Shown here in pieces: positions 1 through 56,295 of a DNA stretch of 64,000 bases. The position numbers were made by a program, and so were the translations under genes. Source of the DNA: Polytrichum commune. Taxonomy: Eukaryota; Streptophyta; Polytrichopsida; Polytrichales; Polytrichaceae. The stretch lies in contig OX485809.1 of NCBI GenBank assembly GCA_950295325.1, positions 16,878,144 through 16,942,143 of the forward strand. The letters are read 5' to 3'. A model generated the notes under the pieces. The model searched no databases. It was given only the letters and a program-made list of their open reading frames with translations, and was not told the DNA's origin. The first letter of the stretch is position 1. The number at the start of each line of letters is the position of its first letter.

Positions 1-276
1 TCCGGTCCCTTTTTTTAGCAAGGGGCCGGCGTGAATAAAGTGTCCGTTCGTAATGCCAATGACCCGATGCCCACTGGACAAGGGGACAATACTACTCTCC
101 CCTTTCGAGGATGGACACTATAGTGACACACTATACTAGTTCCTAGCTAGCCACTAGTGCCTTGAAGATACCGGACATGGTATCCCCCCAAAGGGCTTTG
201 AGGTACCCATACAACAAGGTCCAAGGACCCCCCACCATAGTTGGGTGGACTAAGGTGGTGAGCACCACGCCGGCAT

Positions 277-293
277 GGGGAATAGAACCCACA
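277..293 (-). promoter_or_regulatory. Pol III B box of the SINE
   Basis: The minus strand reads GTGGGTTCTATTCCCC, matching the GGTTCNANNCC core of the B box except at one or two positions. It is paired with the A box at 316-334. Confidence 0.7.
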
Positions 294-315
294 ACCTCCT
301 CATTGGGGGCCATGA

Positions 316-334
316 GCCCTAACCACCAAGCCAA
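316..334 (-). promoter_or_regulatory. Pol III A box of the SINE
   Basis: The minus strand reads TTGGCTTGGTGGTTAGGGC, close to the tRNA A-box consensus. The matching B box lies about 25-40 bp downstream on the same strand. This is an internal promoter, as in tRNA genes and SINEs. Confidence 0.7.
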
Positions 335-1099
335 GGCCCGTGGTGCCCGCCACCAACAACATCATCTACTATACCATCAATGTACAAAAAATCACATGTA
401 ATATGGCTATGGAGTTCCACTTATCCCAATAAATAATGCATGCAATCACTCAAAACCTTACCATGTTCCTCCCTAGACTCTACCAATGCCTCCCCACCTC
501 AAACCAACAAGGCCCTAGCACATCCACACACACATGTGATCATCCACTCCAACTTCAAGCTCCGCCCGGTTACCACGGTCCACCTCAACACAACCCCCCT
601 AATGAATAGCTCTTCACCGATACCATCACAATGGGCCAATTTGATCAATATGTATGCACTTTTGATTGTTCTTCATTATAATAGAGTGTGCAATTCACAC
701 AAATCCACACACACAAGACTTCTTTTGATATAATCTATCATGACCCTCCTACCAAAAAATTAACTCTTGCATAAAAAAACACTTCTCAATGACTTACACA
801 CTTGCTTCACTCGTCATATAACCAAACACAACATCCTCAAAGAGCCCAACACGTCTAAATTTTTTCTCACTCTCATTAGCCTCTTCGTCCTCAAAACACT
901 CTACACCAATGTCACAAAAGTATCCAAAACCACACATTATACACATCACAACAACAAATTGGCATTAATCAAAAATCTCATATATATCCTCACACCTGTA
1001 AGTCTCCCCTACTCAAAAATATCCACAAGCATACCCCTCGAAAATAACATAGCCCCAATGAATCCCAACCCACATTGGCACGTCACACCCCACACAACA

Positions 1100-1385
1100 G
1101 ATAGATAGATAGATATGAACACCTGCCCTTTACAAGGGGCCGGCGTGAATTGAGTGTCTGTTCGTCTCGACAATGGGCCAGAGCCCACAGGACAAAGGAC
1201 CATTGTTGCAAGACTACTCTTCCCTTTCGGAAATAGACACTTTAGTAACTGAAGATAAGTCTTAGTACCTCGAAAGGTGTAGGTAGGTCATATGGGTATA
1301 TATTTGTGTGGGCTTTGTTTTAGGATGCCAAGTCATGGTTCCAATGTTGGTTGGAACGTTTGTGCTACCATTTGGACGGTCCGGG
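1100..1385 (-). mobile_element. 286-bp retroposon sharing the LINE/SINE tail
   Basis: This element is flanked by a perfect 12-bp duplication, CCCCACACAACA, at 1088-1099 and 1386-1397. Read on the minus strand it ends in the family stem-loop (arms AGTGTCT 1153-1159 and AGACACT 1235-1241), a terminal hairpin, and a TATC microsatellite tail next to the left duplication. The roughly 130 bp at its minus-strand 5' end show no clear A or B box. It is therefore either a 5'-truncated LINE 3' UTR or a second SINE type. It is inserted into LINE copy A. Confidence 0.8.
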
Positions 1386-2309: not shown

Positions 2310-2990
2310 ACCTCCACCATGCATACCCACATTATTACTTGGAACACATGCCATATAGCTCCAGCCTCCCATGCATTATGAAACTAATAGAAAACATACA
2401 AGCAAACCCATCATTTTATACTACAAGAAACCAAACTCTTAGAAGGGTATTCTACTACCTACATAGATATTGATCCTCGAAATACAAAATCCTCTAGAAT
2501 CACAGATATCTCCGAAGAAACCCACAATTTACATCATATGAACCCCCAAGAGGTGGCACCCTTGTCTTGATCCATGAAACATATACTCTTTTTAAAAATA
2601 TAAAAACCCAAACCAAGGAACAAATCACCATATCTACTAGTCTTTAAAATGTCTAACAAACCACTCACACATCTACTCATGATGAACCTATACATGCCCA
2701 CACATCCCCTCGTCCCAATAATCAAAGACAAATTCAAAATCCTTACTAAAAACCACCCTACACATAAAGTGTTATTAGCATAGAGACTTTAATGGAGACA
2801 TCCTCCCAAATGGTTGCCTACACGTCGGCATTCCCCAAACCCTTAAACGAGAGGACAAAGATTGGGCACAATTCATGTAAGGCTTAGCCCTTCACCCCAT
2901 CCCCAACAATGAAACCTTCTTACAACATGGTCGCCAAAACTACACCTCCGCTAGCCTTATAAATGGCTTATACACCAACATCCCACTTCA
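2310..2990 (+). pseudogene. LINE endonuclease domain remnant
   Basis: Across frameshifts the plus strand can be read as IITWNTC near 2327, QETKLL near 2428, RGGTLVLIHETY near 2551 and HRDFNGD near 2778. These correspond in order to the N-terminal strand with catalytic Asn, the LQE..L motif with catalytic Glu, the GG....I segment, and the GDFN motif of apurinic-type (APE) LINE endonucleases. This enzyme nicks target DNA to prime reverse transcription. Stops and shifts make the copy non-functional. Confidence 0.65.
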
Positions 2991-4179
2991 CACCCTACCA
3001 AAATGTCAATCCTTAAGTAACCAAAATCAAAACTCAAACCATTACCCAATCAGCCTCACACTCAACTCCGTACAACTAGCCGGAACATCACACCAGTCAC
3101 CATAATACTAACCAAAAACTGCATACCCATTTTTTCAAGAAAACACACAAACACTCCTCATTAAGTTCCAAAAAGCCACCAATCTAAAATCACAATTATT
3201 GACCACAACCCTACAAAACCCATCAATGACCTCCACTGAATGGAAATATGCCCAAGATAGATTTTAAGACATAAAAAACACAATCAGTACCTCCGTCAAC
3301 AAAACATGTATAAACAAATGAGCCTCCTCTCCATGCTGCACCGTACCCGCCAAAAAAAGGTTTCCTTCCCCACAAACAACAAAAAGTTTGGAAGCAACAT
3401 CTAAAAACATGCCATCTCATAAAGAAAGCCATATGCATAATCAACACCTAACTCCACCCCATTTGGCTTACCCAACCGGACATACAACAACTACAAACCC
3501 TCACAAATGTCATCATGTCACCTACCCAAAAAATAACTCAACAATACAACAATGGGTTGGCGAAATTGCCAAAATAGAAGCTCGCAAAATCACCTCTAAA
3601 GAAACCCATAACTTGTAAAAAGACCATCATCAAATATAGAATCATATTAAACAACAAACCTAAAACAATACATGAAAGAAATTTCAAACCCACCACCAAC
3701 GCACCTCTAGATTGCCTCAAAGACACAAACAACAACGTCCTTACACACCCTCAAGACATTGCCCAAGAAATACGGCGTTTACAACAAACCTCCTTTCAAA
3801 GACAAACCCCTTTATGCAATGACCATACCGACCACCCCTCAACATTTCATTGTGCAGTCAAAAATACCCATGGCATGGCCCAAATAGCCTCATCCTTGAG
3901 GCGAGTGGCTCCAAAAACGCCATCATATCCAAACCACCCCATCAATCTTACATAGCAGTACAACCCCAAATACAATCCACAACAATGCATATACACAAAT
4001 AATTACTTCATACTGCCAAATGAACATGACATAGGAAACATTGTTAGCTATGGTGTTCATAGTACAAATAATGACCGTCGTGTTGCATAAAGACTCCTTT
4101 GACTACCAAACATACTTTGCATGGAACCCTATGCTTTATTCAATGCTATCATTGTCACAAAAGACCAACCGCAAAACAC

Positions 4180-4765
4180 CTCCGTATTTATTGACAACCT
4201 TGACAACATATATCTCATTAACAATCACATCCGACCCTTCATCCCAACACAACCACCCTGACAAAATACTTATCTTAGCCATAGTCCATCAAATTCTATG
4301 GACCAAACACAACATAACATATAAAAAAAAGTTAGAGCACACATTGGAAGCTCAAGCAACGAAATCGCAACCAACTAGCAAAGGAAGGAACCACCCACAA
4401 CAAACCAATCCCCACACCCCACATACACATCGCACACACCATACCTTCTTGGCTCAACGGAATCCCAACAAGTGAACATCACATAGAAATCCACAACCTC
4501 CAAACATACGTAAACAAATACCACTGTGAGCAAACACTATGAATTACAAAATCCAAAATCACATACGTCAACAAATGGGTGTCTAAAGAGCAAATCAATC
4601 CAAAACTCTCAAACTAATGGAAAGCCTCAAGCATATATGACGCACAAATTACACACACCTCAAAATTCCGATATGCCCAATACATGGAAAATTGTTGAAA
4701 GAACATCTTTTGGCCATTAATGTATCCCATCCCCAAATGCACACTTTGCCCACCTACTCTTCATT
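4180..4765 (+). pseudogene. LINE RNase H and zinc-finger remnant
   Basis: Frame-broken segments read VFIDNLDNIYLINNHI, then VRAHIGSSSNEIA, then IPSWLNGIPT. These align with the RNase H core and the linker of the LINE copies at 33.5-34 kb and 56.8-57.1 kb. Further on, FRYAQYM and CTLCPPT match the start of the CxxC zinc finger seen in the 55-56 kb copy. The copy stops in mid-finger at about 4760, where a SINE-like element begins. A short LINE-like fragment (the HIAMVDSQ region of the C-terminal extension) reappears at about 5020-5055, so the intervening C-terminal sequence was lost. Confidence 0.7.
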
Positions 4766-5012
4766 AAACTACCGGGTGATAGTGGAGAGGTACCCATTTC
4801 CGAATGGAGTGGTTGGCGGTTCGATTCATGTTGTAAAATCTTCTCTCTTCTTGATGGAAAAAAACTAGCTAGGTAGGTAGGAAGCCAAGAGCACATCCAC
4901 CGCAAGGTAGGCAGTAAATCCCACCTTGCACCAAGAGGATTCTTGAGCAAGGTAGGGCCAACAAGCTCAAATTCACGATGGATTGCCCGACATTAGTTAT
5001 TTATTTATTTAT
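4766..5012 (+). mobile_element. Probable second SINE family
   Basis: About 245 bp sit between two fragments of LINE copy A. A good B box, GGCGGTTCGATTCATG, is centred near 4816. An A-box-like GGTGATAGTGGAG lies about 40 bp upstream. The 3' end is a TTTA microsatellite (about 4995-5012), a common SINE tail. TTCATT occurs at both ends and may be a short target-site duplication. The body differs from the SINE at 1-345, so this is a distinct family. The pol III head is only moderately convincing. Confidence 0.5.
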
Positions 5013-5060: not shown

Positions 5061-6989
5061 GGGGGGGGGAAATTGACCCCCTCATTCAAACATTAAAAAC
5101 TGCGGGAAGGAATGTTAACCCCCTTATTACTATCACAACAAGGGTACGAGGAGCCGTACACAAACAATCACTTGATGCCCGAGAAGTCAAAAACTCATGA
5201 AAAACATACATCAAATAGTCATAAAATACCTCACATACCTTGTCCTAAATTAAAGAAAGCTCAACAACATGACAACCAAGTCCTAGTTGACCTACCCCCA
5301 TGAATCCAAACATCCACACCCAATTCATCAAAAACCCACAAAAGACCCCCCCCCCCCTTGAAATTATTATTTAAAGGAACCCACCTCCTGGAAGGTAGGA
5401 AGTACGCCTACCCTATCACCTAGTAAAATGGGAACATGTTAAGGAAGAACATGCTCCCATTCACGTTGGTGCAAATAAAAAGCAGTGGTGATATTTTTAT
5501 ATTATTAATATCATGAGCTACAATACAAAAAGAAGATTCACTCAAATGTAAATGTCATTGGTGTGAATTACGATGTTGCTTCATCTTCAAGTTGGTGTAA
5601 TGACCTTCTAGGGCAAATGGGCCAATCACATTCACACGAGTGCAAATAAAATATCAATGTTGTCCTTTTCTTTTGAGTACGAAGATCAAGTCCATTAAGG
5701 GGTGTTTTGGACCCCAAGTTTCTTGAAACTAGATCATGTTGTCAACACACCCTAAGGCACGTGGATCTTATATGGTCGTTGTTCTTAATTGGACAAAGGT
5801 CTAAATTATTTGGTATTTGACATGGCTAAGAATGGACACCAAAATGACATATATGATGCTAGGATTGGACTATGTGCTCAAAATATATACACTCTTCTCA
5901 CTTTAGTTGTCAACATATTTGGGAGGGCATATGTGATCACTTACAAAGAAACAAAGAGAATAGATATTTAAACATCCATATTTTTATGTAGTAAAGTGGG
6001 GCTAGGGCTAGACACCCCACTCTTTTAGTTGGACCATTATTATCATTAATTGACATAGAAACACAAGAAATCCTATTTTAACATGCATATTATTTTTATA
6101 AAAATTTTGATCACAAAATTAGCATCAAAGGCCCCAAATTGGTAAGATGAATAAACCACAAACATATACGGGTCATGTTTTAACTAGACCCCTTTACCTC
6201 AATATCATTGGTTGGGCCCAACTCAAAGAGGTGGCCATGAAGTAGTATACAAGACCTTCCTCTTACAAAGAACTAGTATTAGAAGTTGGAAGGAACACCT
6301 AAACAAAGCTTTTTATGTCTAGCAGTGTTCCCAGCCAAGGCCCATGCATCTTTTGGTAAAGAGCATTCATTTGAGTACATTCAAAAGATAACAACATGGT
6401 GTATTGACAACATAACATTACTCATCGATGTGCTTCTGTTACATGAACCATGAGAATATAACCATGGGATGCTAGGAGCTCAAATCTGAGTATATTCCCA
6501 TGGCCCACATAATGGAACCACGGTGGTGAGAAATGTTAAGAAGTTCAAAAGTAGCATCAAGTAAGTTTATCATTCTGAAGTGCAAGTCCTTGGCACTTGA
6601 TTTCGTGCCCCATCATCGTTCTTTCAAAAGGTGAACCATGTGTGGTGAGTCTAGCAACTCAGTTCTATACATTATAAAATGGACTCGTGTTGTTAAATTT
6701 CATTTCAAACTTATGCAGCTGCATGCACTCGAAGAGAACGGGACCAGTGTGTGTGTTTGACAAATTCCATTTGACATTCAACTTTAAATTCAAAGTGTCA
6801 TGTGATGTTTTTAAAAACAAAAATGAATGTCAATTGACATATACATTTTATTCTAAAATGTCACCTCGATTTTGGGTTACACAGTGTATTAGAAAAACTA
6901 ATATTTTGATTAATGAATATACAGTCTTGATTTGTAACAAAAAAAACTATCAATCGAGCGTAAGTATCCTTCAGTCTTGCATGTTTCTC
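5061..6989. other. No gene recognised
   Basis: AT-rich sequence with poly-G (about 5058-5069) and poly-C (about 5347-5358) runs. No reading frame resembles a known protein, and the short ORFs are not supported by motifs. A motif of the form CATTCAC-N-GTGCAAATAAA occurs twice, near 5459 and 5629. Confidence 0.5.
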
Positions 6990-14580: not shown

Positions 14581-14666
14581 ATTATGATACACTGGCCACA
14601 CCGGGGCCCAGCCATCCTGGCTGGTACGGGTCCCCCCGGATCATGGGCCGGCCATCCAAGCGTCTA

Positions 14667-15591
14667 CCGTAGTTTAATAGCAGGTTCGACAGAAAATAGT
14701 TCTAAAAATAGATGCCGAAAATTTTGGAATTTTATTGGCATTTTTTTCCGAATATAAAATTTATTATTTTTCAAAATTGCTGAAAAGTAAGAAATTTTTA
14801 CTTACAATGGAAGCATATTTGAATTTTGAAAGAGAGAAGGTGCTCCTTTTGTAATCAAGCTCACTTACATTAGTCCACAAAGAATATGGGTTAAGAAGTA
14901 GCAAGACTCTAGGTGAGGCTTTTCAAATGTGTTGTACACAAAATTTTGGAGTCCAATTGAGCATAGAAGATGAAGTTTTATAGAATTTTGTCCAACTAAC
15001 AAAAGTTGAGAAATCAATCCTTCTTCCACCTCCAGCAAGTTTTGTGTCAAAATAAGTCTTTATGCAAAAGATATGGACAAAACATTGCAGCCGTGTAAAG
15101 ATCAAAAAATTAAAATGCGTTCATAACAGTTTTTCGGAGCTCATTTGTGCATAGAAGATCAACTTTTTTGGAATTTTGTTGGTCTGAGAAAAGTTTAGAA
15201 ATCAAGTAATCTTTCACCTCCAACAAAGTTTATGTCATTTGAAGACTCTATGCAAAAGTTATGCGTGTTATAAAAATGAAGTCTAACTCGGTGCTTCACC
15301 TCAAAGTTTACATATCCCATATGCATTGTTGAACACAACTCCACTCTACTTGCATAAAGCACATAGCATTCTCAACTCTTCACTCACATCTTACTTGTCA
15401 TTCAATGCAAGAGAGATGTACAAGATATAAGCTTAAATAGAAAATTAAAAATGAATTTAAGGTGAATTTTTTTAAATTAAAAGAGAAAATTGACAAAAAT
15501 ATGAATATACTATTTTTAGGTGACGAACCTACTTTTTGAACTTTAATTAATTATTCGGCTAACATGTGTCGAACTAGCTATGAACCTACGG
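14667..15591. mobile_element. TA-flanked inverted-repeat element, copy 1
   Basis: The ends are CCGTAGTTTAATAGCAGG at the left and, on the other strand, CCGTAGGTTCATAGCTAG at the right, each bordered by TA (14665-14666, 15592-15593). A second copy with the same ends is at 27700-28646 and is nearly identical across its length. The interior holds two diverged direct repeats of about 145 bp (starting near 14953 and 15146, both containing 'gcatagaagat'). The TA duplication fits Tc1/mariner-type transposition, but no transposase is encoded. Confidence 0.8.
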
Positions 15592-15699
15592 TAATCAGGG
15601 GCCTTTGGGACGGCCAATGTATGACTCACTACATTATGAGGCATACTTCCATGTGGTGGTTGTTCCCAACAAAGAAAACCACTTGGATTTCCTATTGAT

Positions 15700-16437: not shown

Positions 16438-17181
16438 GCTCGGGGTGATCACACCCCCTTACGTGTCGTAAACATGTGTGATAATGGGGTATTTAATGAG
16501 GGGATATTTATGCACCGCTCAATAATTCCCCCCGCCCAATTTGTATGTAAAAGCTATTTTGACGCATTTTTTAGCACCCTATATTTTTTTGTAATTTTTT
16601 AGAAAGGCTAGTTTTTGGCACAATAATTAATTTTATAAATCGTACAAGTACCAAATAGTGGATGGAATTCTATAGCATTGCGAAACCAACTATGTGAGCA
16701 ACAAACATTCCATATCATTTAAATTGTCATTCATTTGGTTTCAATTGGTAACACTGATCCTAAACCATTCAAAGTACTATTCAAAACATGACTGATAGCA
16801 CTTGGATACTAGTTGAAGGGTTACCAATGAACATGAAGATAACAAAATATACAAGCTAAAAATTGGACAAAATCTACACACTTCTTCATTCAAGTAGTCA
16901 AACCCATAATTATTCTACTGAGCCTACAACACACTTTTAGGGGGATTCTATGTCTATGACCCTAATTTTTGTTCCTACTGATTACTAGAATGAAGGAATT
17001 ATCCACCATCCTATTTTACATATAATAATGTAGGGGACATATTTCCAACACTATGGTAGATCTAACAAAATAATAAATTTTACCCTAAACAAGTGAAATT
17101 GACCCCCCTTTATTATTATTATTATTATTATTATTTTAATCTCAAGTTGTTTTCTAAAATTATGATAGTTACCTCCCCAAG
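16438..17181. mobile_element. hAT-like non-autonomous element, short copy
   Basis: It is alignable over its length with the element at 48691-50042 (for example 'cacacccccttac', 'ataatggggtatttaatg', 'aatcgtacaagtaccaaatag', 'gtagtcaaacccataattattct') but lacks about 620 bp of that copy's interior (49120-49745). Its ends have decayed (CGGGGTGATC at the left, GTTACCTCCCC at the right) and no target duplication is clear. Confidence 0.7.
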
Positions 17182-27697: not shown

Positions 27698-27699
27698 TA

Positions 27700-28646
27700 C
27701 CGTAGTTTAAAAGCAAGTTCGACAGAAAATAATTCTAAAAATAGATGCCGAAAATTTTGGAATATCATTGGCATTTTTTGCCGAATATAAAATTTATTAT
27801 TTTTCAAAATTGCCGAAAAGTAAGAAATTTTTACTTCTCACTATATATTTACTTACAGTGGAAGCATATGTGAATTTTGAAAGAGAGAAGGTGCTCCTTT
27901 TGTAATCAAGCTCACTTACATTAGTCCACAAAGAATATGGGTTAAGAAGTAGCAAGAAGTAGCAAGACTCTAGGTGAGGCTTTTCAAATGTGTTGTACAC
28001 AAATTTTTGGAGTCCAATTGAGCATAGAAGATGAAGTTTTATAGAATTTTGTCCAACTAACAAAAGTTGAGAAATCAATCCTTCTTCCACCTCCAACAAG
28101 TTTTGTGTCAAAATAAGTCTTTATGCAAAAGATATGGACAAAACATTGCAGCCGTGTAAAGATCAAAAAATTAAAATGCGTTCATAACAGTTTTTCGGAG
28201 CTCATTTGTGCATAGAAGATCAACTTTTTTGGAATTTTGTTGGTCTACGAAAAGTTTAGAAATCAAGTAATCTTTCACCTCTAACAAATTTCAATTGAAG
28301 ACTCTATGCAAAAGTTATGCGTGTTATAAAAATGAAGTCTAACTCGGTGCTTCACCTCAAAGTTTATATATCCCATATGTATTGTTGAACACAACTCCAC
28401 TCTACTTGCATAAAGCACAGAGCATTCTCAACTCTTCACTCACATCTTACTTGTCATTCAATGCAAGAAAGATGTACAAGATATAAGCTTAAATAGAAAA
28501 TTAAAAATGAATTTAAGGTGAATTTTTAAAATTAAAAGAGAAAATTGCCGAAAATATGAATATACTATTTTTAGGTGACGAACCTACTTTTTGAACTTTA
28601 ATTAATTATTCGGCTAACATGTGTCGAACCAGCTATGAACCTACGG
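27700..28646. mobile_element. TA-flanked inverted-repeat element, copy 2
   Basis: It has the same ends and interior as 14667-15591, in the same orientation, bordered by TA (27698-27699, 28647-28648). It differs by scattered substitutions and small indels, such as a 25-bp gain near 27838 and an 11-bp tandem gain near 27955 ('aagtagcaag' doubled). High similarity suggests fairly recent activity. Confidence 0.8.
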
Positions 28647-28648
28647 TA

Positions 28649-31171: not shown

Positions 31172-32590
31172 GCTACCATGAAACAAAAAATAAAAATGGT
31201 TGACACAGTTATAAGAGCTAGTATAGCCTACAACTTCTACGCCATGCCATACTCTCTTCCGGCCATTAAAAATTTGGACAAGAAAATAATAGCATTGCAT
31301 AAATCCATATGTGGCCTACCAAAATGTATGTCCAATGCAGTCACACAACTGCCACACAATATGTTTGGGACATAAGTTTTTTCATTAAAAAACGCATACA
31401 TAACATGCATAGGAGAACAACTCATACATGCCCTAAATGACAAAGGTAGGCTAGGTAGAATATACAAAGGATTAATACACCACATACTTGCGAAACACGG
31501 AGAAGCCAAAAATTTAATACGTATATCACCCCACGACTGTACAATATCACCAATCACAAGATCTCTGTACTTATTGAAAAAAACAAGTGGAATCCACCTT
31601 AAAAGCACACTCCAAAATTTCCCCCTCATTCCTACACCATTAGAAACACAATGGATGTTACAAGCAAGACACATCCCAACGCTGACCCCAAAACTATCAC
31701 TAAAATACCTCCACAAACTAATACTACACAACATATTCGAACTAAAACATCTAACATGCTCCAATGGAACACACCTAATGAGTAATGATGAATTTGAAAC
31801 CCACTACAATAAACCCACAAAAATAGAGAAAATGGCACTGGAATATGCTACAAAGCTATTTTGTGAACCAATATGCCTTATCCAATGCACACAACCATGC
31901 CCAACACATATGTCACCAAACACCTTGAAAAACAAATATAGAATACTAAATCATAACATACATATAAGACCACAAGAACAACACAACCAACTGCAACCTC
32001 CATTATCACTAGAACACCCCAAACCACCCCCATACATACTCAAAGACCCAACACACTTCCCGATACAAAGCATTAGAAATGACCGCCTATGCGCATACAC
32101 AGACAAGTATAAAATTTCAAAAAATAACACAGCATACCTATGCCAATGGACTCTCCCAAATGAAACAACTTACAACAAATGGCTACCCCAAAAAGAATTG
32201 TTTCCTTGGAACAACCAAGACGCCATAAACCATAACATATTACTACTAACACAATACCACACTCGAAAACAACACCAACATTTTATAAACATATTAAACA
32301 TAAACTTCAACCAAGAACAAATGAGAGATACCAGATATATCCCCCCGCCACAAACCATACCCCTATGCCAAATACACGTTAACGACTGCAACCCAGAAAA
32401 TGATATCGCATGCACACAATATACTATCCAAACCCAATATGACAATGCACACATATACGATAATATTGGTCGACACTTGATTACCATTCCTGAAACACGA
32501 CTAAAATGGTTATGGGCCCAATACCATCTAGCACTAAATAGACCACACAACCTCGAGCCCCCTCCCAACCATTCGAAACTGAAGTAGCAT
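31172..32590 (+). pseudogene. LINE reverse-transcriptase thumb and connector
   Basis: From 31178 the frame reads IAYNFYAMPYSLPAIKNLDK, then LHKSICGLPK, then (after one in-frame TAA near 31373) IGEQLIHALNDKGRLG. This is the pattern found just after the catalytic core in LINE polymerases (I.Y..Y..P.S...I..LDK, LPK, LND.G.LG). The catalytic palm with the YxDD motif is absent because of 5' truncation. An open stretch to the stop at 32585-32587 continues as the connector region, rich in Thr, His, Asn and Pro as dictated by the A/C-rich strand. The second half has no assigned function. Confidence 0.7.
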
Positions 32591-33340
32591 GGCTATACCA
32601 AAGGTATAAATACAAAACTCCCAAAAATGATCCCCTCAAACTCTTGCAATACACACTCCCAAATACCATCCTTGAAAACCTCATAAACACATTCCAAATA
32701 ACACACTCATACTTCTCATCACCAGTAACATGCCCCACCACACTCAGACAATTCCACTCCCCATGCCCTAGAGATGTAGTCTTTGGATCAGTTGGAAAAA
32801 AATTCCAACATAAATGGCATGGCAATGGATATGCACACCCACACACACATACCGAAACTCAACAAGCCCTACACTGGGCCCGCCTAGCAGCCAAATACGA
32901 CTCAAACGCTATCACAATACTAATAATGTCAGACGAAAACTAGTATCATAATCCTAATCCTCATAATGGCCCTTTCCCAGATTCGCATGTTATCACCCAC
33001 TTCAAAGCTGATACCATCATCTACGAAGAACCAACAATTCCCCCAGAACTAAGAACTGAAGCTAGAACAGAAAACCGAGCCATACAAATAGTATGCATAC
33101 ACCATAAGCACACACCCATAGGAACAGAGACCCATACCCAACAAATGCAAGATATTGCCAACACAATAGGTATCCCCGAAATGTTCTGCCAAATAGCACC
33201 ACCAACACCACCAGGCACCATAGTAAACCGCAATACAAAATGGACCAAACTCACCTACCCACCCACCCCGCCTACCATCCAAACCGCAACCAACCCATGG
33301 AATATCAACCCAGAACAATGCCTACCGCTTAAATACCCAC
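32588..33340 (+). pseudogene. LINE middle region of unknown function
   Basis: Continues the LINE frame between polymerase and RNase H. At about 32776-32940 it reads DVVFGSVGKKFQHKWHGNGY, then AHP, ALHWARLAAKYDSN and ITILIMS. After a stop at 32941 it goes on with FPDSHVITHFKADTIIYEEP and IPPELR. The compact conserved-looking block (FGS...F..KW.GNGYAHP...A..WA..AA......TILI) resembles in outline the FG...F..W...NPPY...A..LLP arrangement of Dam-type N6-adenine methyltransferases. The NPPY catalytic motif would be replaced by AHPH. The link is a guess from pattern only. The 3' part of this region (from 33045) is present again at 38687. Confidence 0.45.
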
Positions 33341-33993
33341 CCCAATTCTGCTACTACATGGACGGGTCATTCAAACCTCCCAAACAAATAAATAACGGAC
33401 AATGGAGACGGGAAAAAGCTGGATATGGTATTTACAACCCTTTCAAGAAACTAAAAATTGCAGAAAGACTACCAGGACTACAAAATATCCTACGAGCATA
33501 AATGATGGCCATACACCATACTCTACAACTCCTCACCACAACATACCAAAATGAACCAGCCCACATATTCACAGATTGCCTAAATATCCTATACCTCCTA
33601 AACACCCAAATCAAACACCCCACTAATCATAACAGTCACCCGAACAAAATAATCCTAGAAAACATGATCAAAATGTTAATATCCCGCACACAAACCACCA
33701 CAATACACAAAATAAAGACCCATACAAACATAGAGGAAAATGACCAAGCAGACACACTAGCCAAACTAGGACGTGAATTAGACCACAGAGATGCTGCAAC
33801 CCCATACAAACATGCACACCCCACACCATACTACCTACAAAAAGATTGGTGGCATTCCATGCAAGAAACACTTGATAAAGGCCCCATCAGGCACCTTGGT
33901 AAATACATTATTCAGCATGACAATGAACATAACTTAACAATTATAGCAGGCCAAACGCACCAACTACACAAATGGCTAGAAATGACGACATAG
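33340..33993 (+). pseudogene. LINE RNase H domain (first copy)
   Basis: CYYMDGSF near 33352 carries the first catalytic Asp. KAGYGIYNPF follows. The usual A-E-L-x-A-I helix reads RA-stop-MMAI (stop at 33499-33501), so the codon of the catalytic Glu has become TAA. IFTDCLNILYLL near 33568 carries the second Asp. KTHTNIEENDQADTLAKLG near 33715 carries the H/N..AD motif. RNase H removes the RNA strand during LINE cDNA synthesis. The linker to 33990 (TPYYLQKDWW) is shared with the copies at 4.4 kb and 56.9 kb. The frame shifts near 33970 into the zinc-finger part. Confidence 0.8.
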
Positions 33994-34637
33994 ACAAAAC
34001 ACTATCAAATGACTTTTGGACAAATCCCGCCATCACAAATAAGCAAAAAACATGCTTAATAAAATTCCGCACTGGACAATATATGGGCCATGCCCGGAAA
34101 CAACTTGTCTTTGGCAGAGAAGCCTTCCCATCAAGAACATGTCCCATCTGTAACTCAACAGATGCGGATACATGGCTACATGTACTGCTTAAATGCAAGC
34201 AACAACACATCCACGCACTAATAACAAAAAGACATAACAAAGCGGTATGGGAAACACGCAAACTCATTGTATCAACCCGAATATCAAGACATTATACATT
34301 AATGAATGCAGGAACACATAATGAACTACCCCGAGAAAACACAGTACCTCCATGATTACTTCCATGTACATGTGATACCCTAAGATGTCATTGTAACGCT
34401 AGGCTCAAACCAAACATACTATGTATTATAGGCCATCCATATAACCACCCCCCCTAGAAACCCCTACACCTGATATCATCATACAGTTCATCGAATTCAC
34501 ATATTGCAATGATAGATTCGCCACTGAAACCCAAGACAGAAAATCCACAAAATACTAACCACTCATTAACAACATCATAGCAAAATGATGGAATGTAGCC
34601 CCACTCATGGTACTAGCTGCATGAGCAAGAGGCACAA
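33972..34637 (+). pseudogene. LINE zinc finger and C-terminal extension (first copy)
   Basis: FRTGQYMGHARKQLVFGREA is followed by CPICNSTDADTWLHVLLKCK and, after a short gap, KRHNKAVWETRK, the C-x2-C...H...H finger typical of plant and algal LINE ends. After a stop at 34353 the frame continues as RLKPNILCIIG, then IIQFIEFTYCNDRF and PLINNIIAK. It breaks at 34638, where the TG...CA element is inserted. The remaining C-terminus resumes at 38471. The extension is conserved in the minus-strand LINEs at 50.1-50.4 and 54.2-55.9 kb. Confidence 0.75.
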
Positions 34638-37600: not shown

Positions 37601-38470
37601 GTTTTCGTGTGCGTAAAGGTGGAAGAAGAAAGGCCCTATGTAGGAAGGTTGGCCTCGCTTAGTGTTGGTTGCCAACTTGTGCACCAATTCTCCAATGATG
37701 CTCCCCCAATCCACCACCTTCTTCTCGGAGTATGCAATAAGTAAGGTGGTGGTAAGGGTAAGAGTGATGTTATAAGGCTTTTCCGGGCTAAAGATAGGCA
37801 CTAGAAAAGCTAATATCCTTCTTTCCTTCTCGTCTTTACAATCATTCACAAAATATCCATACTTGGGGTCCAGCCTCTGGGAGAATTTGTCCCTGGTACA
37901 ATCCTCTCTCTTAGTGGCCATACCTTCCCCTCCTTGCTTGAACCCGTAAACCCGACTCCACAATTCCGCATTCCACCTATCCGGTCGGCCCCGGATGGTG
38001 GAAGCGTAAACGTGGTCCATCTCCCCCGTGAATGACTCCCTTACCATCTCCTCACAGCGCACTCTCCAAGATTTTCCCATAATCCAAGGCAGCCCATGCG
38101 CCTCAAGTCTGCCTCCAACTCATTGCTCTCCTCTCGACCAGTGGGGGTGACCACGTGCACCTTGCGGAGGGCTAGCGGCTTGTCCATGATCCGCTTTCGT
38201 GTTTGGGTGGCCATGGTGGTTGCGGCCCGCCGTCGCCTGTGCGGTCCGCTCCGCTCTAAGGTTTTCGAGTCGAAACAGAATTCCTAACACTAATTCAATT
38301 CGATATTTTTAACTACTCTAAGGATTTTAGTTTTTCTTCTTCAATTCTAAATAGCCTACCTAACAATCTACCAATAAAATACTCTATTTATTATGTTTTC
38401 CTTGCTCAAACCTATTCCTTAATCTTAAAACAAGGTTTCTTAAGAATTTAAGAAAATGCGGGCCGCGACA
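34638..38470 (-). mobile_element. 3.8-kb TG...CA element, giant solo LTR or unusual retroelement (copy 1)
   Basis: The element splits the LINE C-terminal frame exactly. It starts TGTCGTAGCACGG (34638) and ends GCGGGCCGCGACA (38470), so it has TG...CA ends. The short imperfect inverted repeat is TGTCG-T/C-A/G-GC. Flanks CACAA (34633-34637) and TACAA (38471-38475) fit a 5-bp target duplication with one change. No direct repeat of one end is visible at the other, so there are no internal LTRs. A solo LTR of unusual length or a deleted retroelement is most likely. On the minus strand it carries a 581-codon frame about 390 bp from its end. The remaining 1.7 kb (34638-36330) has no supported gene; it includes four CTAAC-type units at about 35942-35968. 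Confidence 0.65.
36335..38080 (-). CDS. Element-borne 581-aa coiled-coil protein, function unknown (copy 1)
   Basis: I do not recognise a named family with certainty. Residues 1-185 form a folded, mixed-composition region (WRVRCEEMVRESFTGEMDHV near the start, LIAYSEKKVVDWGSIIGELV at 114-133, KRGQPSYIGPFFFHLYAH at 141-158). It resembles in outline the plant transposon-protein regions described around CEEMVREF-type motifs. Residues 186-235 are acidic, then basic with a KKRK nuclear-signal-like cluster (210-213). Residues 293-342 are a strong coiled coil. Residues 400-555 are Pro/Val/Thr-rich and probably disordered. The tail 560-581 is Lys/Arg/Glu-rich. The ATG at 38080 follows an upstream ATG at 38214 whose frame (MATQTRKRIMDKPLALRKVH) runs into this protein if one base is added near 38090. 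The real start is therefore probably 38214 and the gene is frameshifted. Codons are GC-richer than the host LINE. Confidence 0.55.
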   Translation of the reverse strand: MGKSWRVRCEEMVRESFTGEMDHVYASTIRGRPDRWNAELWSRVYGFKQGGEGMATKREDCTRDKFSQRLDPKYGYFVNDCKDEKERRILAFLVPIFSPEKPYNITLTLTTTLLIAYSEKKVVDWGSIIGELVHKLATNTKRGQPSYIGPFFFHLYAHENLLTDEEDTLWTSHQFMRELQTTDLEPEMGHEDSKEKDVVEMSDEERPVTKKRKLMLGNRVTRTRSATKLVGGGTSTFSLEDNPVDSIIRDLEGVRSRIVDYELQMHQVGELVGNPPRESLVAAIKEAIQDPRRLRELERKVDHLTTEKRKTAKRVRKLEAEREKLLKQVKYITLTVQKLSDMIEIPGNVWWKAKMFDAEFKNAGHVFGSKMVTFIMDQGSKMDASLKTMKALIASCMELFPVVVESSEERESSSGYSDLTPHDMVEIQGTAVEGGNQHAEEVDQVEDITAITALPVSTTEVLVPKVTPISAAVGEETLDDRHVAEVSTPILATDFQVVVWDPPPLAILTPEFPPDKQLSSPLAPNVAETADCVGVSSAPNAHDVQVAPPRAPFLAMDSADRREERKQNKKEAKLKKRKDKE

Positions 38471-43200: not shown

Positions 43201-44112
43201 CTGATGCGATGTCCATAGGGTGTCTTCTTCGTCCGTAAGTAGGTTTTCGTGTGCGTAAAGGTGGAAGAAGAAAGGCCCTATGTAGGAAGGTTGGCCTCGC
43301 TTAGTGTTGGTTGCCAACTTGTGCACCAATTCTCCAATGATGCTCCCCCAATCCACCACCTTCTTCTCGGAGTATGCAATAAGTAAGGTGGTGGTAAGGG
43401 TAAGAGTGATGTTATAAGGCTTTTCCGGGCTAAAGATAGGCACTAGAAAAGCTAATATCCTTCTTTCCTTCTCGTCTTTACAATCATTCACAAAATATCC
43501 ATACTTGGGGTCCAGCCTCTGGGAGAATTTGTCCCTGGTACAATCCTCTCTCTTAGTGGCCATACCTTCCCCTCCTTGCTTGAACCCGTAAACCCGACTC
43601 CACAATTCCGCATTCCACCTATCCGGTCGGCCCCGGATGGTGGAAGCGTAAACGTGGTCCATCTCCCCCGTGAATGACTCCCTTACCATCTCCTCACAGC
43701 GCACTCTCCAAGATTTTCCCATAATCCAAGGCAGCCCATGCGCCTCAAGTCTGCCTCCAACTCATTGCTCTCCTCTCGACCAGTGGGGGTGACCACGTGC
43801 ACCTTGCGGAGGGCTAGCGGCTTGTCCATGATCCGCTTTCGTGTTTGGGTGGCCATGGTGGTTGCGGCCCGCCGTCGCCTGTGCGGTCCGCTCCGCTCTA
43901 AGGTTTTCGAGTCGAAACAGAATTCCTAACACTAATTCAATTCGATATTTTTAACTACTCTAAGGATTTTAGTTTTTCTTCTTCAATTCTAAATAGCCTA
44001 CCTAACAATCTACCAATAAAATACTCTATTTATTATGTTTTCCTTGCTCAAACCTATTCCTTAATCTTAAAACAAGGTTTCTTAAGAATTTAAGAAAATG
44101 CGGGCCGCGACA
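40280..44112 (-). mobile_element. 3.8-kb TG...CA element (copy 2, by tandem duplication)
   Basis: Identical to 34638-38470 and in the same place in the LINE. It arose by the 5,642-bp duplication, not by a second insertion, since its flanks and the insertion site are duplicated with it. Confidence 0.8.
41977..43722 (-). CDS. Element-borne 581-aa coiled-coil protein, function unknown (copy 2)
   Basis: Identical translation to 36335-38080: folded N-terminal 185 residues, KKRK cluster at 210-213, coiled coil at 293-342, low-complexity C-terminal third and charged tail. The upstream frame starting at ATG 43856 is separated by the same one-base shift. The defect therefore predates the duplication, and neither copy is likely to make the full protein. 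Confidence 0.5.
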   Translation of the reverse strand: MGKSWRVRCEEMVRESFTGEMDHVYASTIRGRPDRWNAELWSRVYGFKQGGEGMATKREDCTRDKFSQRLDPKYGYFVNDCKDEKERRILAFLVPIFSPEKPYNITLTLTTTLLIAYSEKKVVDWGSIIGELVHKLATNTKRGQPSYIGPFFFHLYAHENLLTDEEDTLWTSHQFMRELQTTDLEPEMGHEDSKEKDVVEMSDEERPVTKKRKLMLGNRVTRTRSATKLVGGGTSTFSLEDNPVDSIIRDLEGVRSRIVDYELQMHQVGELVGNPPRESLVAAIKEAIQDPRRLRELERKVDHLTTEKRKTAKRVRKLEAEREKLLKQVKYITLTVQKLSDMIEIPGNVWWKAKMFDAEFKNAGHVFGSKMVTFIMDQGSKMDASLKTMKALIASCMELFPVVVESSEERESSSGYSDLTPHDMVEIQGTAVEGGNQHAEEVDQVEDITAITALPVSTTEVLVPKVTPISAAVGEETLDDRHVAEVSTPILATDFQVVVWDPPPLAILTPEFPPDKQLSSPLAPNVAETADCVGVSSAPNAHDVQVAPPRAPFLAMDSADRREERKQNKKEAKLKKRKDKE

Positions 44113-44328
44113 TACAACACACATCCCATTAATGAAAAAACTGGAAACAACGTTCACAATCCCCATCACAAAAATCCAAAACACGTTTAAACAAATTAAC
44201 ATAATCGCCACACAATATGCACACTCCATATTAGTACACAAACGAAGACTAGAAAATCGACAAACTATTAATGACCTTCAAGACCCAACATAAATAAACA
44301 ATACCTCCAACCCAACACAGATCCCCCC
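44113..44328 (+). pseudogene. LINE C-terminal end (second copy)
   Basis: Duplicate of 38471-38686; ILVHKRRLENRQTINDLQDP and a stop near 44292. It leads directly into the only copy of the 3' UTR. Confidence 0.8.
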
Positions 44329-44551
44329 ACTACTACCCCAAAACATGGCTCATACATAATAATTGGCTACCAAAATTTACTATTGGTAACTAAATATAGT
44401 GTCTACGTCCTGCAAAGGGCGAAGTAGTTTTACATCTAACGCCACTACTGTAAGGCATGGCCTAGGGTGTTCTACAAACAAACACTTTATTCACTCCAAC
44501 CTCCTTCTGGAGACCGGAGTTCTTCTTCTTCTTCTTCTTCTTCTTCTTCTT
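44329..44551 (+). other. LINE 3' UTR with conserved stem-loop and TTC tail
   Basis: On the sense strand the arm AGTGTCT (44398-44404) pairs with AAACACT (44480-44486). A terminal hairpin CTCCTTCTGGAG lies near 44502. A TTC tract (44519-44551) abuts the 13-bp target duplication. The order is the same as in the reverse complements at 48305, 54108 and 55283 and in the SINE tail at 1-130. Such 3' structures are what the reverse transcriptase of stringent-type LINEs binds to start cDNA synthesis. Confidence 0.8.
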
Positions 44552-46837: not shown

Positions 46838-48304
46838 AAAGTAATTGAATAATTACTTGGACGACTAGGCCCAAAATGTCACTATCTCACAATTCCACCT
46901 TGGGTCACGTTTTTTGGGTGTTTCCCCTTTGGTTGGTTGAACTTGTTTCCTTCCTGCAATTGATTTCGTTCTCAATTTGTACTCCAAATAAAAGGGAAAA
47001 AGAAAGAAAGAAAAAATGGAACGGCTTACATGGTCGGAGATTATACCCACAATGGACTACATGATCACGGAGTCATATGCATAATATTTGGTTGCAATTG
47101 TTTACATAGAAAGTGGCCCAAGAAATAAAGAGAGAGCAACAAACATTGTGATGGGAAATGAGGTACTTGGTTGGCAGTCTTTGTCGCCATGGTAAGTATA
47201 GGCCCTTAATATGTGCATTAGTGGAAGGGAAAATTTGCATACCAAACATAATAAGTTGAAGTATGTTTTAATAAATTTTAATATGTGCATTTCGGATAGC
47301 ATTGTGGTAGTATTGGGTTGTGCAATATGAGGTTGAAGCATAAGAGTGTTTGATGTAGACACATAGAAGTTTTATATGTTAGGGTTGGTTTTTGAAAAAT
47401 GTATATTCAAGGTGTATCGGAGGTTCAAATTATTTGTATAGTTATTGGAGTTTGCATGGTCTCATCATCGTAGTTATTTATGATCAAAATGCATTTCATG
47501 CAACCTCATGGTTATGTAATCTAGAATATTGCAAGTTGTTACCCAATTTAAGCAGGTCGAAGGTTTAAATCTTTGAGTGGCCTTCCTAAGCCAAATGAGA
47601 AGAGAGAACATTTAGCTCTCTCACATTGAGCTAGCCATACGGTTTTACAATTCTTCCACGTATGGATTAATGTGCAACTTTGAGGTTTGAATAGAGGTTC
47701 ATTGATTATATCAAGTTTAATTGTTTTGGTGCAATTGCCCGTTGCCAGAGGGGGGGGGGGTTAGGGTGTGTGGACACATAGTCGACTTAAAACATGAGAT
47801 GAGTGTGTTGTCCCTAGGCTATACCTCTTTATATACAAAGATTTATGTCACAAAATGATACACATACAAATTTATAGGTAAGGAGTAGTCTCAAGTATTT
47901 ACACAAGTTGGAAAATAATAAATAATGAATTGTTAAACATACTTATATCCAAACATCATGATGCATGTAATGTAAACTTCCAAAGCTCTTATTGCATCAT
48001 AAATAACCTAATATATTCACAAAATGAATAAATTGGTACCCTATATGTATAATTTGTGTTCCCTACCCCGTAATGATACTCCTTTTGTGCAGCCACATGG
48101 GTAAGAAAATGGGAATGTGATAGAGGAGTTTTAAGGTAAACCATTAATTTGGGAGTTTTAGCATCAACCATAAAGCATGCGCTACCTTATAGAGTATACC
48201 TATACATAGTTTTGCCTATTGAGATTTCATGTAGACTCCCTTTCTAAGTATCCACTGAAATGCGTAGAGTTAACAATATTTAATGGTCACTTGACCAGAA
48301 GAAG
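46838..48304. other. No gene recognised
   Basis: AT-rich sequence with a poly-G run near 47750-47760. Nothing with motif support on either strand. Confidence 0.4.
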
Positions 48305-48690
48305 AGAAACTTCGGTCTCCGTTAGGAGGCCGACGTGAATGAAGTGTCTGTTCGTTCCACCCCTAGACCTATGTCCACTAGACAAAGGAATAGAGGTATA
48401 GAACTACTTCCCCCTTTCGAGAGTAGACACTATAGTCACAAGTAATCAATAACAGATAGAACTAGTACCCAATAAGGACTGGTTAGTCTTGGATTTGTTT
48501 GGTGCAAGGTTTTAACTCTTGGTGTTTTAGATTCTGGTGAGTGTGTTTGCGTAAGTATTAGGAGTGTGATGTTTATGTCACCTAGCAGTCCATCTTTCGC
48601 GTGGCAGGGGGAATTGTGCCCGTTGCCGATATATACTAATGTGGTTTTAATTATTATATTTTTAGTATTTATTTATTTGTTGACTAGGGG

Positions 48691-50042: not shown

Positions 50043-50054
50043 ACTAGGGGGGGT

Positions 50055-50437
50055 CTTGTAATTGAGTTAGAGGTTGATTATTTTCTAATCTTCTTTTGTG
50101 GAGGAGGATGGACATGGCATATCGTATGGCAATGGTGTTTATGTTTTTAAAGGTGTTTCGAATGGCTGACATAGGTAGTTTGAATTTGTCTTCAAGTATT
50201 TTCATTGATGGGGTGTGTGTTGCAGCTCTAGCGCCTGCCGTAATAACGATGATCGGGTCAATTTTCCAGCCTCTAGTGGCTATGTTTTCTATTAAGGGTC
50301 TATATTTGTTAGCTTTAGCTTCGAGTGTTTCCGGTGAGAATCTGTCGTTACAGTATGTGAATTCAATGAATTGTATGATAAGATTTTGGTCAATATTTGT
50401 GGGTGGTTCGTTTTGGTATGGTCACTTGACCATTTAA
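50055..50437 (-). pseudogene. LINE C-terminal extension (copy C)
   Basis: The minus strand reads LIIQFIEFTYCNDRFSPETL, then KYRPLIENIATRGWKIDPII, VITAGARAATHTPSMKILED, and finally IRYAMSILLHKRRLENNQPL and LQDPP. It is the best-preserved example in the window of the extension that follows the zinc finger in this LINE family and has no internal stop. The upstream domains are missing because of 5' truncation. The function of the extension is unknown; its position suggests nucleic-acid or template-tail binding (inference). Confidence 0.7.
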
Positions 50438-54085: not shown

Positions 54086-54430
54086 AGAAAAGAAAAGAAA
54101 AGAAAAAGTAGCGCCCGTACATTGGTACCGGCATGAATGTGAGCCCGTTAGCCTTATGTTGATCACGGTATTCCGAGATGCAATATAGGGTGTTTTACCT
54201 CCATGGGAGGTGGGCTCTAATATTATATTAACATATCCAACTTTACTATGGCGGGGGGATAGGTGTTTGTTTGTTATCAAGTTTTCTTTTATTTAGGACG
54301 AGGTATGTAAGGTATTTAATGGCGTTTTGGTGTATATGTTTCATGAGGAGTTTGATGCTAGGTTTTGGGATTTTTAGTTGGGTTAATTTGTCGATGGAGT
54401 GTTCGTGTATGGCTCCTCTAACTCCAGTAT
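54086..54430 (-). mobile_element. 5'-truncated LINE 3' end (copy D)
   Basis: A 345-bp insertion with a perfect 11-bp duplication, AACTCCAATTA, at 54075-54085 and 54431-54441. The minus strand encodes TGVRGAIHEHSIDKLTQLKI ... LTYLVLNKRKLDNKQTPIPP. The 3' UTR follows, with stem arms GAGCCC (54141-54146) and GGGCTC (54212-54217), a GTAC-CAAT-GTAC terminal hairpin and a TTTTC-type microsatellite tail (54086-54106 on the plus strand as AGAAAAGAAAAG). Confidence 0.85.
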
Positions 54431-54727
54431 AACTCCAATTACAAATAGGTTTCTTTCCATATTTCAAAATGTAGTATACCTTAAAGCCATAACATCAACT
54501 TCTGTAATGTGATTCCTTCTCTAATATTTCAAAACTCTAGAAAATAGATGTTCGTAATTCAATGTCACTCCTTATTGTCACATCCCCCCTTTGTATCATG
54601 GGTTTTGACATTAATGCAAACCACCAAAGAAGTCAACCCACACCCTCGTATTGCGCCATGTATCAAGAAATTCCTCTTGCATGTTCTCCGTTGTCATGCT
54701 CCTCACGTTCTTCATGCTTTAACTTGA

Positions 54728-55224: not shown

Positions 55225-55439
55225 TGAGGTTATGGTTTGTTTAAACACAACAATTCAATGGAGCAAATAAAATAAAAATAAAAGTAACGTCGGGGTTTGG
55301 TTTGTACACTGACATGAATGGGAGCCTGTTCCTCTATATTGTGTTCATGTTTGACCATGTGTCATCATAAGAGTACTTCCTTCCTCTCGGAAGGTGGGCT
55401 CCTGTAGTTTTCAAGAGGGAACGTGTTGTCAAGCAACAA

Positions 55440-56295
55440 GGGGGGATTTATGGGGGGTTGTTTGTTGTCTAGCTTCCTTTTGTTTAAAATTATGTAACTG
55501 AGGTATTTAATGGCGATTTGGTGTAGATTTTTCATGAGTCTCTTGATCTTGTTTTTGGGTATCTTGAGTTTTTCTAATTCTTCAATTGGCTGTTCGTGAA
55601 TAGCTCCTCTGACTCCTGTTGTGATGGTGATGAGAGGGTTGACTTGCCAACCGCCTATTTTGAGTATTTGTATGAGTGGGTTATATTTAACGGTTTTTTC
55701 ACTGTGTGCGGTATTTGGGAATCTATCATGGCAATATGTGAATTCAATGAATTATATGACATTTGTTGGGGTTGGCATTATGGGAGGTTGGGTGTTTGTG
55801 GAGGCACTTGATACGCATAGTATGTCCGGTCTAAGTATGGCTAGGTATGCGCATGTGGTAGAGGGGCATGCACATTGGAGTAGCCATTGTGGGAGTGTGT
55901 TGTCTTGTGGTCTAAAGTTTTGGTTGCCTGCATTTATGAGTGTGTAGTATCTTGTATATTTATTTGATTGTAACATATGTGCAATTTGGTGGACTGCTTT
56001 ATTATGGCATGCTATACATAGGCCCTTTATGTGAGGGGCTTGAGTATGTAGAGAGTAGGTGTGGCCATGTGTCCATGGTATTGCTGGGGCATAGTGTACA
56101 ATATGGGTTTAAGAATAAGTTAGGTCAGAAGATATTTTTATAGTGGTTACCCATGTATTGGGCATAGCGGAATTTTAGAGTTTGTGTAATTTGGGCATCT
56201 TTGATCCGGGGGTTTTTCCAAAATTGGTTGGAAAGGTTGTGATTGATTTGGTCGTTGGATGTCCATTTCTCTATGTATGTGAATTTAGATTGGGT
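55440..56295 (-). pseudogene. LINE zinc finger and C-terminal extension (copy E)
   Basis: The minus strand reads LKFRYAQYMGNHYKNIF, then (after a stop) CTLCPSNTMDTWPHLLSTYS and ACHNKAVHQIAHML, a C-x2-C...H...H finger with one Cys changed to Tyr. RYYTLINAGNQNFRPQDN and LRPDILCVSSAST follow. After another stop come FIEFTYCHDRFPNT, KIGGWQVNPLITITTGVRGA and IHEQPIEELEKLKIPKNKIK. It aligns throughout with copies at 34 kb, 50 kb and 54 kb. Confidence 0.75.

What the first reader, a model, noticed from the sequence alone, without database searches (positions are those of the whole stretch)
1..130. SINE and LINEs share a 3' stem-loop that keeps its pairing while its sequence changes
Six tails can be compared: 1-130 (SINE), 1126-1250, 44398-44520, 48305-48440, 54108-54240 and 55283-55410. 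The closing stem is AGTGTCC/GGACACT, AGTGTCT/AGACACT (twice), AGTGT/ACACT, GAGCCC/GGGCTC and GGAGCC/GGCTCC. The next pairs also covary (TTCG with CGAG or CGAA-like; TTCC with GGAA). A second hairpin at the very end shows CTCC/GGAG, GTAC/GTAC and CCCTT/AAGGG forms. Compensatory change in independent copies is strong evidence for a functional RNA. In eel and zebrafish L2-type LINEs, and in some plant L1/SINE pairs, such tails are recognised by the reverse transcriptase and are copied by SINEs. The tRNA-headed SINE at 1-345 fits that role here.
Basis: partly seen in the sequence, partly recalled or inferred. Interest (0 to 1): 0.85.

Follow-up and report, generated by a model that had tools for sequence, protein, structure and literature searches.

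The report
Folded RNA tail shared by retroposons
Jumping genes in this genome, large self-copying ones and at least one family of small hitchhikers, end in the same elaborately folded RNA shape even where the letters differ, which suggests that the copying enzyme recognises the shape and that the hitchhikers exploit it.

Summary
Six retroposon 3' tails of ~130 nt share one fold: outer stem H1, hairpin H2, long arm H3, an ATTCAYG linker, terminal hairpin H4 and a simple repeat. Five lie on the minus strand. A decayed seventh lies at 5376-5490. In 22 tails of one family 95.6% of cells pair and 19 of 42 pairs changed on both sides (shuffled mean 6.7, 0/500). A structure model of that family finds a second family in the window (E 5e-6) and in 27 of 30 loci; a sequence-only model finds none of these. 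Of 30 loci fetched by LINE C-terminal protein, 29 carry the tail, 28 in sense. The SINE at 1-347 shares only ~159 nt of tail with a LINE of 2,625 codons (89.9%) and has target-site duplications. A second tRNA-headed repeat (4765-5010) was checked and its tail is not supported. The LINE has RT, RNase H, a PCIF1-like domain, a 2A-like motif, a weak APE-type match and restriction-like endonuclease motifs: probably Dualen/RandI-like, unproven. Binding by the LINE protein is inferred.

The parts
1..347 (-). SINE1: tRNA-like head (starts at 347; A box 333-323, B box 289-279), tail 122-1; its 3' repeat lies outside the window
1..122 (-). folded 3' tail of SINE1
1100..1385 (-). retroposon with first-family tail 1112-1244 and (TATC)n end; 12-bp direct repeats 1088-1099 and 1386-1397; body is either another SINE or a truncated LINE
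2325..4749 (+). decayed LINE copy: endonuclease region, then RNase H and C-terminal parts (no RT match); that it belongs with the tail at 5376 is inferred
   Evidence: tblastn with L091
5376..5490 (+). decayed second-family tail
   Evidence: not found by R1 at E<=10; weak R2 match E 1.2; best single fold differs
31172..34636 (+). LINE copy: end of RT region, PCIF1-like domain, RNase H, CCHC/RHN region
44006..44290 (+). C-terminal end of the LINE copy that carries tail 44395-44527 (duplicate at 38364-38648)
44395..44527 (+). folded tail, first family, ends in (TTC)n
50047..50421 (-). C-terminus of the LINE whose tail is 48302-48434 (about 1.3 kb of foreign sequence at the stop codon)
48302..48434 (-). 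reference tail: H1 48431-48425/48349-48343; H2 48423-48419/48414-48410; H3 48407-48350; linker 48340-48334; H4 48333-48325/48320-48312
54249..54494 (-). LINE C-terminus upstream of tail 54104-54221
54104..54221 (-). folded tail, third family (GAGCCC/GGGCTC, GTAC/GTAC), ends in (TTTTC)n
   Evidence: (E 0.021)
55455..56268 (-). second-family LINE C-terminus (RPDILC...FIEFTYC...KY motifs)
55280..55405 (-). folded tail, second family (GGAGCCC/GGGCTCC)

Best explanation
The tail is a cis-acting RNA at the 3' end of a LINE lineage. Shown: it lies downstream of the LINE stop codon, its helices are kept while their letters change, it is more conserved than the adjoining 3'UTR, it ends in a simple repeat, and a tRNA-headed SINE family (SINE1) carries the tail and no other detectable LINE sequence. 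Inferred: the LINE protein binds the folded tail and starts target-primed reverse transcription in the terminal repeat, so that RNAs with the fold are copied; SINE1 has captured the fold and is copied in trans, most likely by the L091 family.
For: 95.6% of 923 cells paired, 19 of 42 pairs changed on both sides (shuffled mean 6.7, 0/500; slid versions 4-8) in 22 first-family tails. Tree-based null on 75 distinct tails, 18 pairs: 94.2% paired vs 68.5%, 11 vs 4.0 double-changed pairs, 0/1000 each. A structure model from family 1 finds family 2 (E 5.3e-6) and family 3 (E 0.021) in the window and 27 of 30 family-2 loci; the sequence-only model of the same alignment finds none of these. Protein-anchored loci: tail in 29 of 30, 28 in sense (L079 and L080 are identical). 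DNA-anchored tails: LINE C-terminus upstream in sense in 45 of 60. Of the 12 first-family loci without it 11 could be tested: direct repeats of 9 bp or more in 11, of 10 bp or more in 10; cross-locus controls 89 and 19 of 756. Tail 87.0% vs adjoining 3'UTR 64.8% identity at C-terminal nucleotide identity 80-85% (75 pairs among 20 of 31 loci). SINE1/L091 share one stretch, 159 nt at 89.9%, with the same (TATC)n end; target-site duplications by eye in 3 of 3 SINE1 copies read.
Against: No binding or retrotransposition data. Within the second family alone double changes do not exceed the null (1 vs 1.85, 867/1000). The generic covariation test found nothing. R1 misses the decayed tail 5376-5490 at E<=10 and three of 30 family-2 loci. 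ARAGORN sees no tRNA in the SINE and its A box alone is not significant. The second SINE candidate did not hold up.
Confidence: 0.83

Rival explanations
1. The tail is kept because its primary sequence, not its fold, is recognised, or because copies are young; pairing is incidental.
For: The linker ATTCAYG is nearly invariant and many copies are close to each other. Second-family tails alone show no excess of double changes.
Against: A sequence-only model does not find the second family, a structure model does; double changes exceed shuffled and tree-based nulls.
Confidence: 0.07
2. The fold acts in RNA stability, 3' end formation or export of LINE and SINE RNA rather than in priming of reverse transcription.
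For: Nothing here separates these; the fold sits at the RNA 3' end.
Against: Stringent LINEs studied in fish use the tail for template choice (PMC4176376, passages); a pol III SINE transcript would be processed differently (general knowledge).
Confidence: 0.12
3. SINE1 is mobilised by another machinery and obtained the tail by chance fusion; the partnership is not functional.
For: No trans-mobilisation data; only one SINE family with the tail is shown here.
Against: SINE1 is a large, uniform family (40 of 40 scored hits span 343 or more of 345 nt, 39 at 97%) that keeps the whole fold and ends in the same (TATC)n repeat as LINE L091.
Confidence: 0.07

Closest known systems
Stringent-type SINE/LINE pairs (eel UnaL2, zebrafish ZfL2; PMC4176376, passages)
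   Same: Structured LINE 3' tail plus a terminal repeat; stem sequence may vary while the structure matters
   Different: There a short stem-loop and L2-type LINEs; here a branched ~130-nt domain with a terminal hairpin and another kind of LINE
Plant L1 ME1 tails with ZmSINE2/3 (PMC3747384, passages and section 4.3)
   Same: Plant SINE/LINE pair with compensatory changes in a 3' hairpin
   Different: There a hairpin within ~45-50 nt with UCU loop and CGAG flank in an L1-clade LINE; here neither by eye, and the RT is closest to R2 among solved structures
Dualen/RandI LINEs of green algae and their SINEX-1/-2 (PMC3747384 Table 1; PMC8226300 and PMC3636483, passages)
   Same: RT, RNase H, and features of both endonuclease kinds; SINEs that share the LINE tail
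   Different: SINEX promoters are listed as unknown, here a tRNA-like head; here a PCIF1-like domain and a 2A-like motif (whether algal Dualen has these was not checked); no tree was made
R2 3'UTR RNA (recalled)
   Same: A large structured RNA at the 3' end that the LINE protein recognises
   Different: Not compared here; R2 inserts in rDNA

Membership tests
stringent SINE/LINE tail pair | SINE 3' end homologous to a LINE 3' end and to nothing else in that LINE | tested here: met
   one match between SINE1 copy L092 and L091, 159 nt, 89.9%
stringent SINE/LINE tail pair | pol III-type head (A and B boxes) | tested here: met
   SINE1 A box 7/8 (shuffle p 0.23), B box 9/10 (p 0.0035), 44 nt apart; ARAGORN finds no tRNA
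stringent SINE/LINE tail pair | target-site duplications and simple 3' repeat | tested here: met
   SINE1: three of three copies; LINE tails:
stringent SINE/LINE tail pair | conserved fold with compensatory changes | tested here: met
   negative; second family alone negative for double changes
stringent SINE/LINE tail pair | tail is bound and required in retrotransposition | not testable with these tools
   needs an experiment
Dualen/RandI LINE | non-LTR reverse transcriptase | tested here: met
   RVT_1 2.6e-29; R2 proteins 3.9e-31, LINE-1 ORF2 2.6e-17
Dualen/RandI LINE | RNase H domain | tested here: met
   4.6e-13
Dualen/RandI LINE | N-terminal APE-type endonuclease | tested here: inconclusive
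   Exo_endo_phos_2 E 1.5e-4, 22 bits, below the cut-off of 27.4; ExoIII E 0.23; motifs by eye
Dualen/RandI LINE | C-terminal restriction-like endonuclease | tested here: inconclusive
   CCHC, RHN, RPDILC, E 27 residues later, K..KY by eye (meaning of the motifs partly recalled); no sequence or profile match; fold pLDDT 39
Dualen/RandI LINE | RT groups with Dualen in a tree | not tested
   no Dualen reference sequence was at hand
plant L1 ME1 tail | hairpin with UCU loop and 3' CGAG flank | tested here: not met
   by eye, sequences against the description in PMC3747384 section 4.3

The most novel reading that the evidence does not exclude
A dual-endonuclease (Dualen-like) LINE lineage, a kind that the passages I read place in green algae, has multiplied, probably to thousands of copies (3,732 first-look candidates, 150 scored), in what may be a land-plant genome; it carries a PCIF1-like domain and a 2A-like site, and uses a branched RNA domain as its template tag, which at least one tRNA-headed SINE family has captured.
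Probability: 0.45. Interest if true: 0.78.

Novelty: new variant of a known kind. Interest (0 to 1): 0.6.

Why it matters
It gives a natural series of tails in one genome in which the fold is kept and the letters change, so the rule that the enzyme reads shape becomes directly testable. It bears on the proposal that stringent template recognition was ancestral in green plants (PMC3747384), adds a SINE/LINE pair with a probably Dualen-like LINE, and offers a structure-based handle to annotate retroposon ends that sequence searches miss.

Tried and rejected
Rfam scan of the window at gathering scores: no match. MAFFT of two families together misplaces the H1 3' arm, and RNAalifold on it gave only four pairs, none of them ours; replaced by arm-wise alignment in a script and a model from one family. 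One search contained one wrongly turned locus and was redone. The generic covariation test found nothing. A scan by linker motif gave many chance hits. In one search, 46 of 133 candidate rows were dropped, most of them the same tails read on the other strand; among the sense rows lost are the 44395 and 54104 window tails and the window copy of SINE1, and likewise, so these are not in the 75-tail test (SINE1 is there through L092-L094). The A4 pair counts mix second-family tails with one third-family tail and one truncated fragment and are fitted to the model; I do not rely on them. Structure prediction of a C-terminal fragment failed (pLDDT 39), so no fold search was made. The apparent target-site duplication of L001 is judged chance, since one copy lies in the inserted element. 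TSDs were not looked for in the three second-family loci without a C-terminus (L044, L048, L055). Organism: 407.8 Mb with seven large contigs suggests by recall a Polytrichum-like moss; two tests of plant identity did not complete, so it stays a guess. The literature search returned papers without the word Dualen and says nothing.

Full report
What was checked. The sense strand, judged from LINE reading frames, the SINE head and the 3' simple repeats, is minus for five and plus for 44395-44527. A decayed tail of the second family lies at 5376-5490. A look-alike at 4882-5010 did not hold up (below).

Anatomy. On the sense strand the tail starts with a 7-bp stem H1 (AGTGTCT/AGACACT, AGTGTCC/GGACACT or GGAGCCC/GGGCTCC; shorter in 54104) that encloses a 5-6 bp hairpin H2, with a GNRA loop in 67 of 74 distinct tails (counted), and a long arm H3. 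After H1 come a nearly invariant ATTCAYG linker, hairpin H4 (TCGG..CCGA, TCGATCCC..GGGATCGA, CCGG..CCGG forms), and a simple repeat such as (TTC)n, (TATC)n or a T/A-rich one.

Is it more than chance? In 22 first-family tails with a 42-pair structure, 95.6% of 923 cells pair; 19 pairs have a change on both sides against 6.7 in shuffles (0 of 500), and slid structures reach 4 to 8. The structure was drawn from family members, so the paired percentage leans towards it. In 75 distinct tails of two families, with substitutions redistributed on the tree, 18 common pairs show 94.2% pairing against 68.5% and 11 double-changed pairs against 4.0 (0 of 1000 for both). The first family alone gives 6 against 1.6 (4 of 1000); the second alone keeps pairing (90.3% against 67.5%) but shows no excess of double changes (1 against 1.85, 867 of 1000). 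Higher pairing can also come from plain conservation of these columns; the double changes cannot. Slid versions, 20 simulations each, reach 2 to 7 double-changed pairs and in one case (-3) also exceed their own null. A generic G-test with the same null found no significant pair.

The strongest test uses prediction. Model R1 (structure) and model R2 (sequence only) were built from the same 22-tail alignment, which includes window tails 48302, 1112 and 44395 and a SINE1 copy, so those matches are expected. In the window R1 then finds 55280-55405 (E 5.3e-6) and 54104-54221 (E 0.021, modest); R2 finds neither at E up to 10, though it gives a weak match (E 1.2) at 5389-5470. In 30 loci fetched by DNA similarity to the 55280 tail, R1 finds the tail in 27 (missed: L036, L052, L059), R2 in none. 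R1 misses 5376-5490 and 4882-5010 at E up to 10.

Link to LINEs. A search with the 125-aa C-terminus at 50047-50421 gave 3,732 first-look candidates, 150 scored. Of the 30 best loci R1 finds a tail in 29, in sense in 28; L070 has it reversed; L061 is the window copy, whose stop codon is followed by about 1.3 kb of foreign sequence and whose 3'UTR and tail resume at 48690-48302. These 30 are close relatives and L079 and L080 are identical, so they are not 30 independent events. In the other direction, of 60 tails found by DNA alone 45 have a LINE C-terminus upstream in sense (18 of 30 and 27 of 30). Of the 12 first-family loci without it, 11 could be tested: all have flanking direct repeats of 9 bp or more and 10 have 10 bp or more, against 89 and 19 of 756 cross-locus pairs; in all 28 testable loci 12 and 11 have such repeats. 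One of the 11, L001, is judged chance. Four (L003, L004, L010, L020) begin 0-9 nt before H1: tail-only copies. At C-terminal nucleotide identity of 80-85% the tails are 87.0% alike and the adjoining 3'UTR 64.8% (75 pairs; 20 of 31 loci passed the filter).

SINE1 (1-347, minus). The genome search gave 1,753 first-look candidates; 40 of 40 scored hits span at least 343 of 345 nt, 39 at 97%. Three copies read in full have, by eye, direct repeats of 9-12 bp on both sides and a (TATC)n end. It shares with LINE L091 one stretch, 159 nt at 89.9%, that starts 8 nt before H1. B box 9/10 (shuffle p 0.0035) and A box 7/8 (p 0.23) sit at tRNA-like positions. ARAGORN calls no tRNA.

Other repeats. The element 1100-1385 has a first-family tail and identical 12-bp direct repeats but no B box; only its tail part matches the fetched loci, so it may be another SINE or a truncated LINE. 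The repeat 4765-5010 has A and B boxes 8/8 and 9/10, 2,607 first-look candidates, and 37 of 40 scored hits start at 4764-4767, so it is a SINE-like family; but its 3' part has no R1 match, no BLAST match to a LINE tail and another best fold, and loci L082 and L048 carry its head with a different continuation. I therefore do not count it. Tails 44395 and 54104 belong to families with 793 and 1,033 first-look candidates. First-look numbers are not confirmed copies.

The LINE. L091 (G000:C1:17946200-17954900) has one open frame of 2,625 codons, stop to stop: RVT_1 2.6e-29, RNase H 4.6e-13, PCIF1_WW 3e-10, Exo_endo_phos_2 1.5e-4, below the cut-off. RT matches solved R2 proteins best (3.9e-31), LINE-1 ORF2 less (2.6e-17). 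A 2A-like LLKCGDIEPNPGP lies near residue 278, and the C-terminus has CCHC, RHN, RPDILC, a glutamate 27 residues on and KY. Together these resemble Dualen/RandI, described as coding for both endonuclease kinds (PMC3636483, passages) and found in Chlamydomonas relatives (PMC8226300, passages). The second endonuclease rests on motifs only: no profile match, failed fold.

Mechanism. Shown: position, fold, compensation, sharing by SINE1, insertion hallmarks. Inferred: the LINE protein recognises the fold and primes in the repeat; SINE1 is copied in trans. This follows the mechanism shown for fish L2 LINEs (PMC4176376, passages). Tail-only copies fit a reverse transcriptase that stops once past the folded domain; that rests on four loci picked with a tail-only query.

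Novelty. SINE/LINE tail sharing, compensatory stems in plant tails and Dualen-linked SINEs are known (PMC3747384, passages and section 4.3). I saw no report of the branched tail or of a PCIF1-like domain in a LINE in the listings; the library lacks most subscription journals.

Noticed in passing
window 32542-32940 (+); L091 residues 1871-1966: PCIF1-like domain (PF12237, E 1.4e-9 and 3e-10) inside the LINE between RT and RNase H; the place of PCIF1's NPPF motif (recalled) reads AHPH, so it may not be an active methyltransferase.
   Followed up: partly
L091 residue ~278: 2A-like motif GDIEPNPGP upstream of the endonuclease region, suggesting that one frame yields two proteins; the only such motif in the loci held, most of which do not reach that part of the LINE.
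   Followed up: partly
window 4765-5010 (+): tRNA-headed SINE-like family (A 8/8, B 9/10; 2,607 first-look candidates) with an ATTCACG stretch and a (TTTA)n end; its tail is not supported as the LINE fold, and other loci carry its head with a different continuation.
   Followed up: partly
L003, L004, L010, L020: Copies that consist of the tail alone and begin 0-9 nt before H1, with direct repeats of 10-13 bp.
   Followed up: partly
33037-38678 and 38679-44320: Tandem duplication, 5,641 of 5,642 positions identical, real or an assembly artefact; it copies part of a LINE and an insert in it.
   Followed up: partly
about 48690-50040: Insert at the LINE stop codon with near-perfect inverted GTCACCCCCCCGTGA-like ends, parts of it related to 16626-17105; perhaps a DNA transposon.
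   Followed up: no
14665-15593 and 27698-28648: Two direct repeats of roughly 930-950 nt, 89-99% alike block by block, 13 kb apart; possible LTR pair.
   Followed up: no
58147-59772 (-): Uninterrupted frame of 542 aa with flavin monooxygenase domains (FMO-like 5.6e-18) in a stretch of 52% GC against about 40% around it; perhaps a gene of bacterial origin.
   Followed up: no
L032:1315-1370 (-): 5'-truncated fragment of a first-family tail with (TC)n end and a TATTCATTTGA direct repeat, found by R1 and R2 in the flank of another copy.
   Followed up: partly
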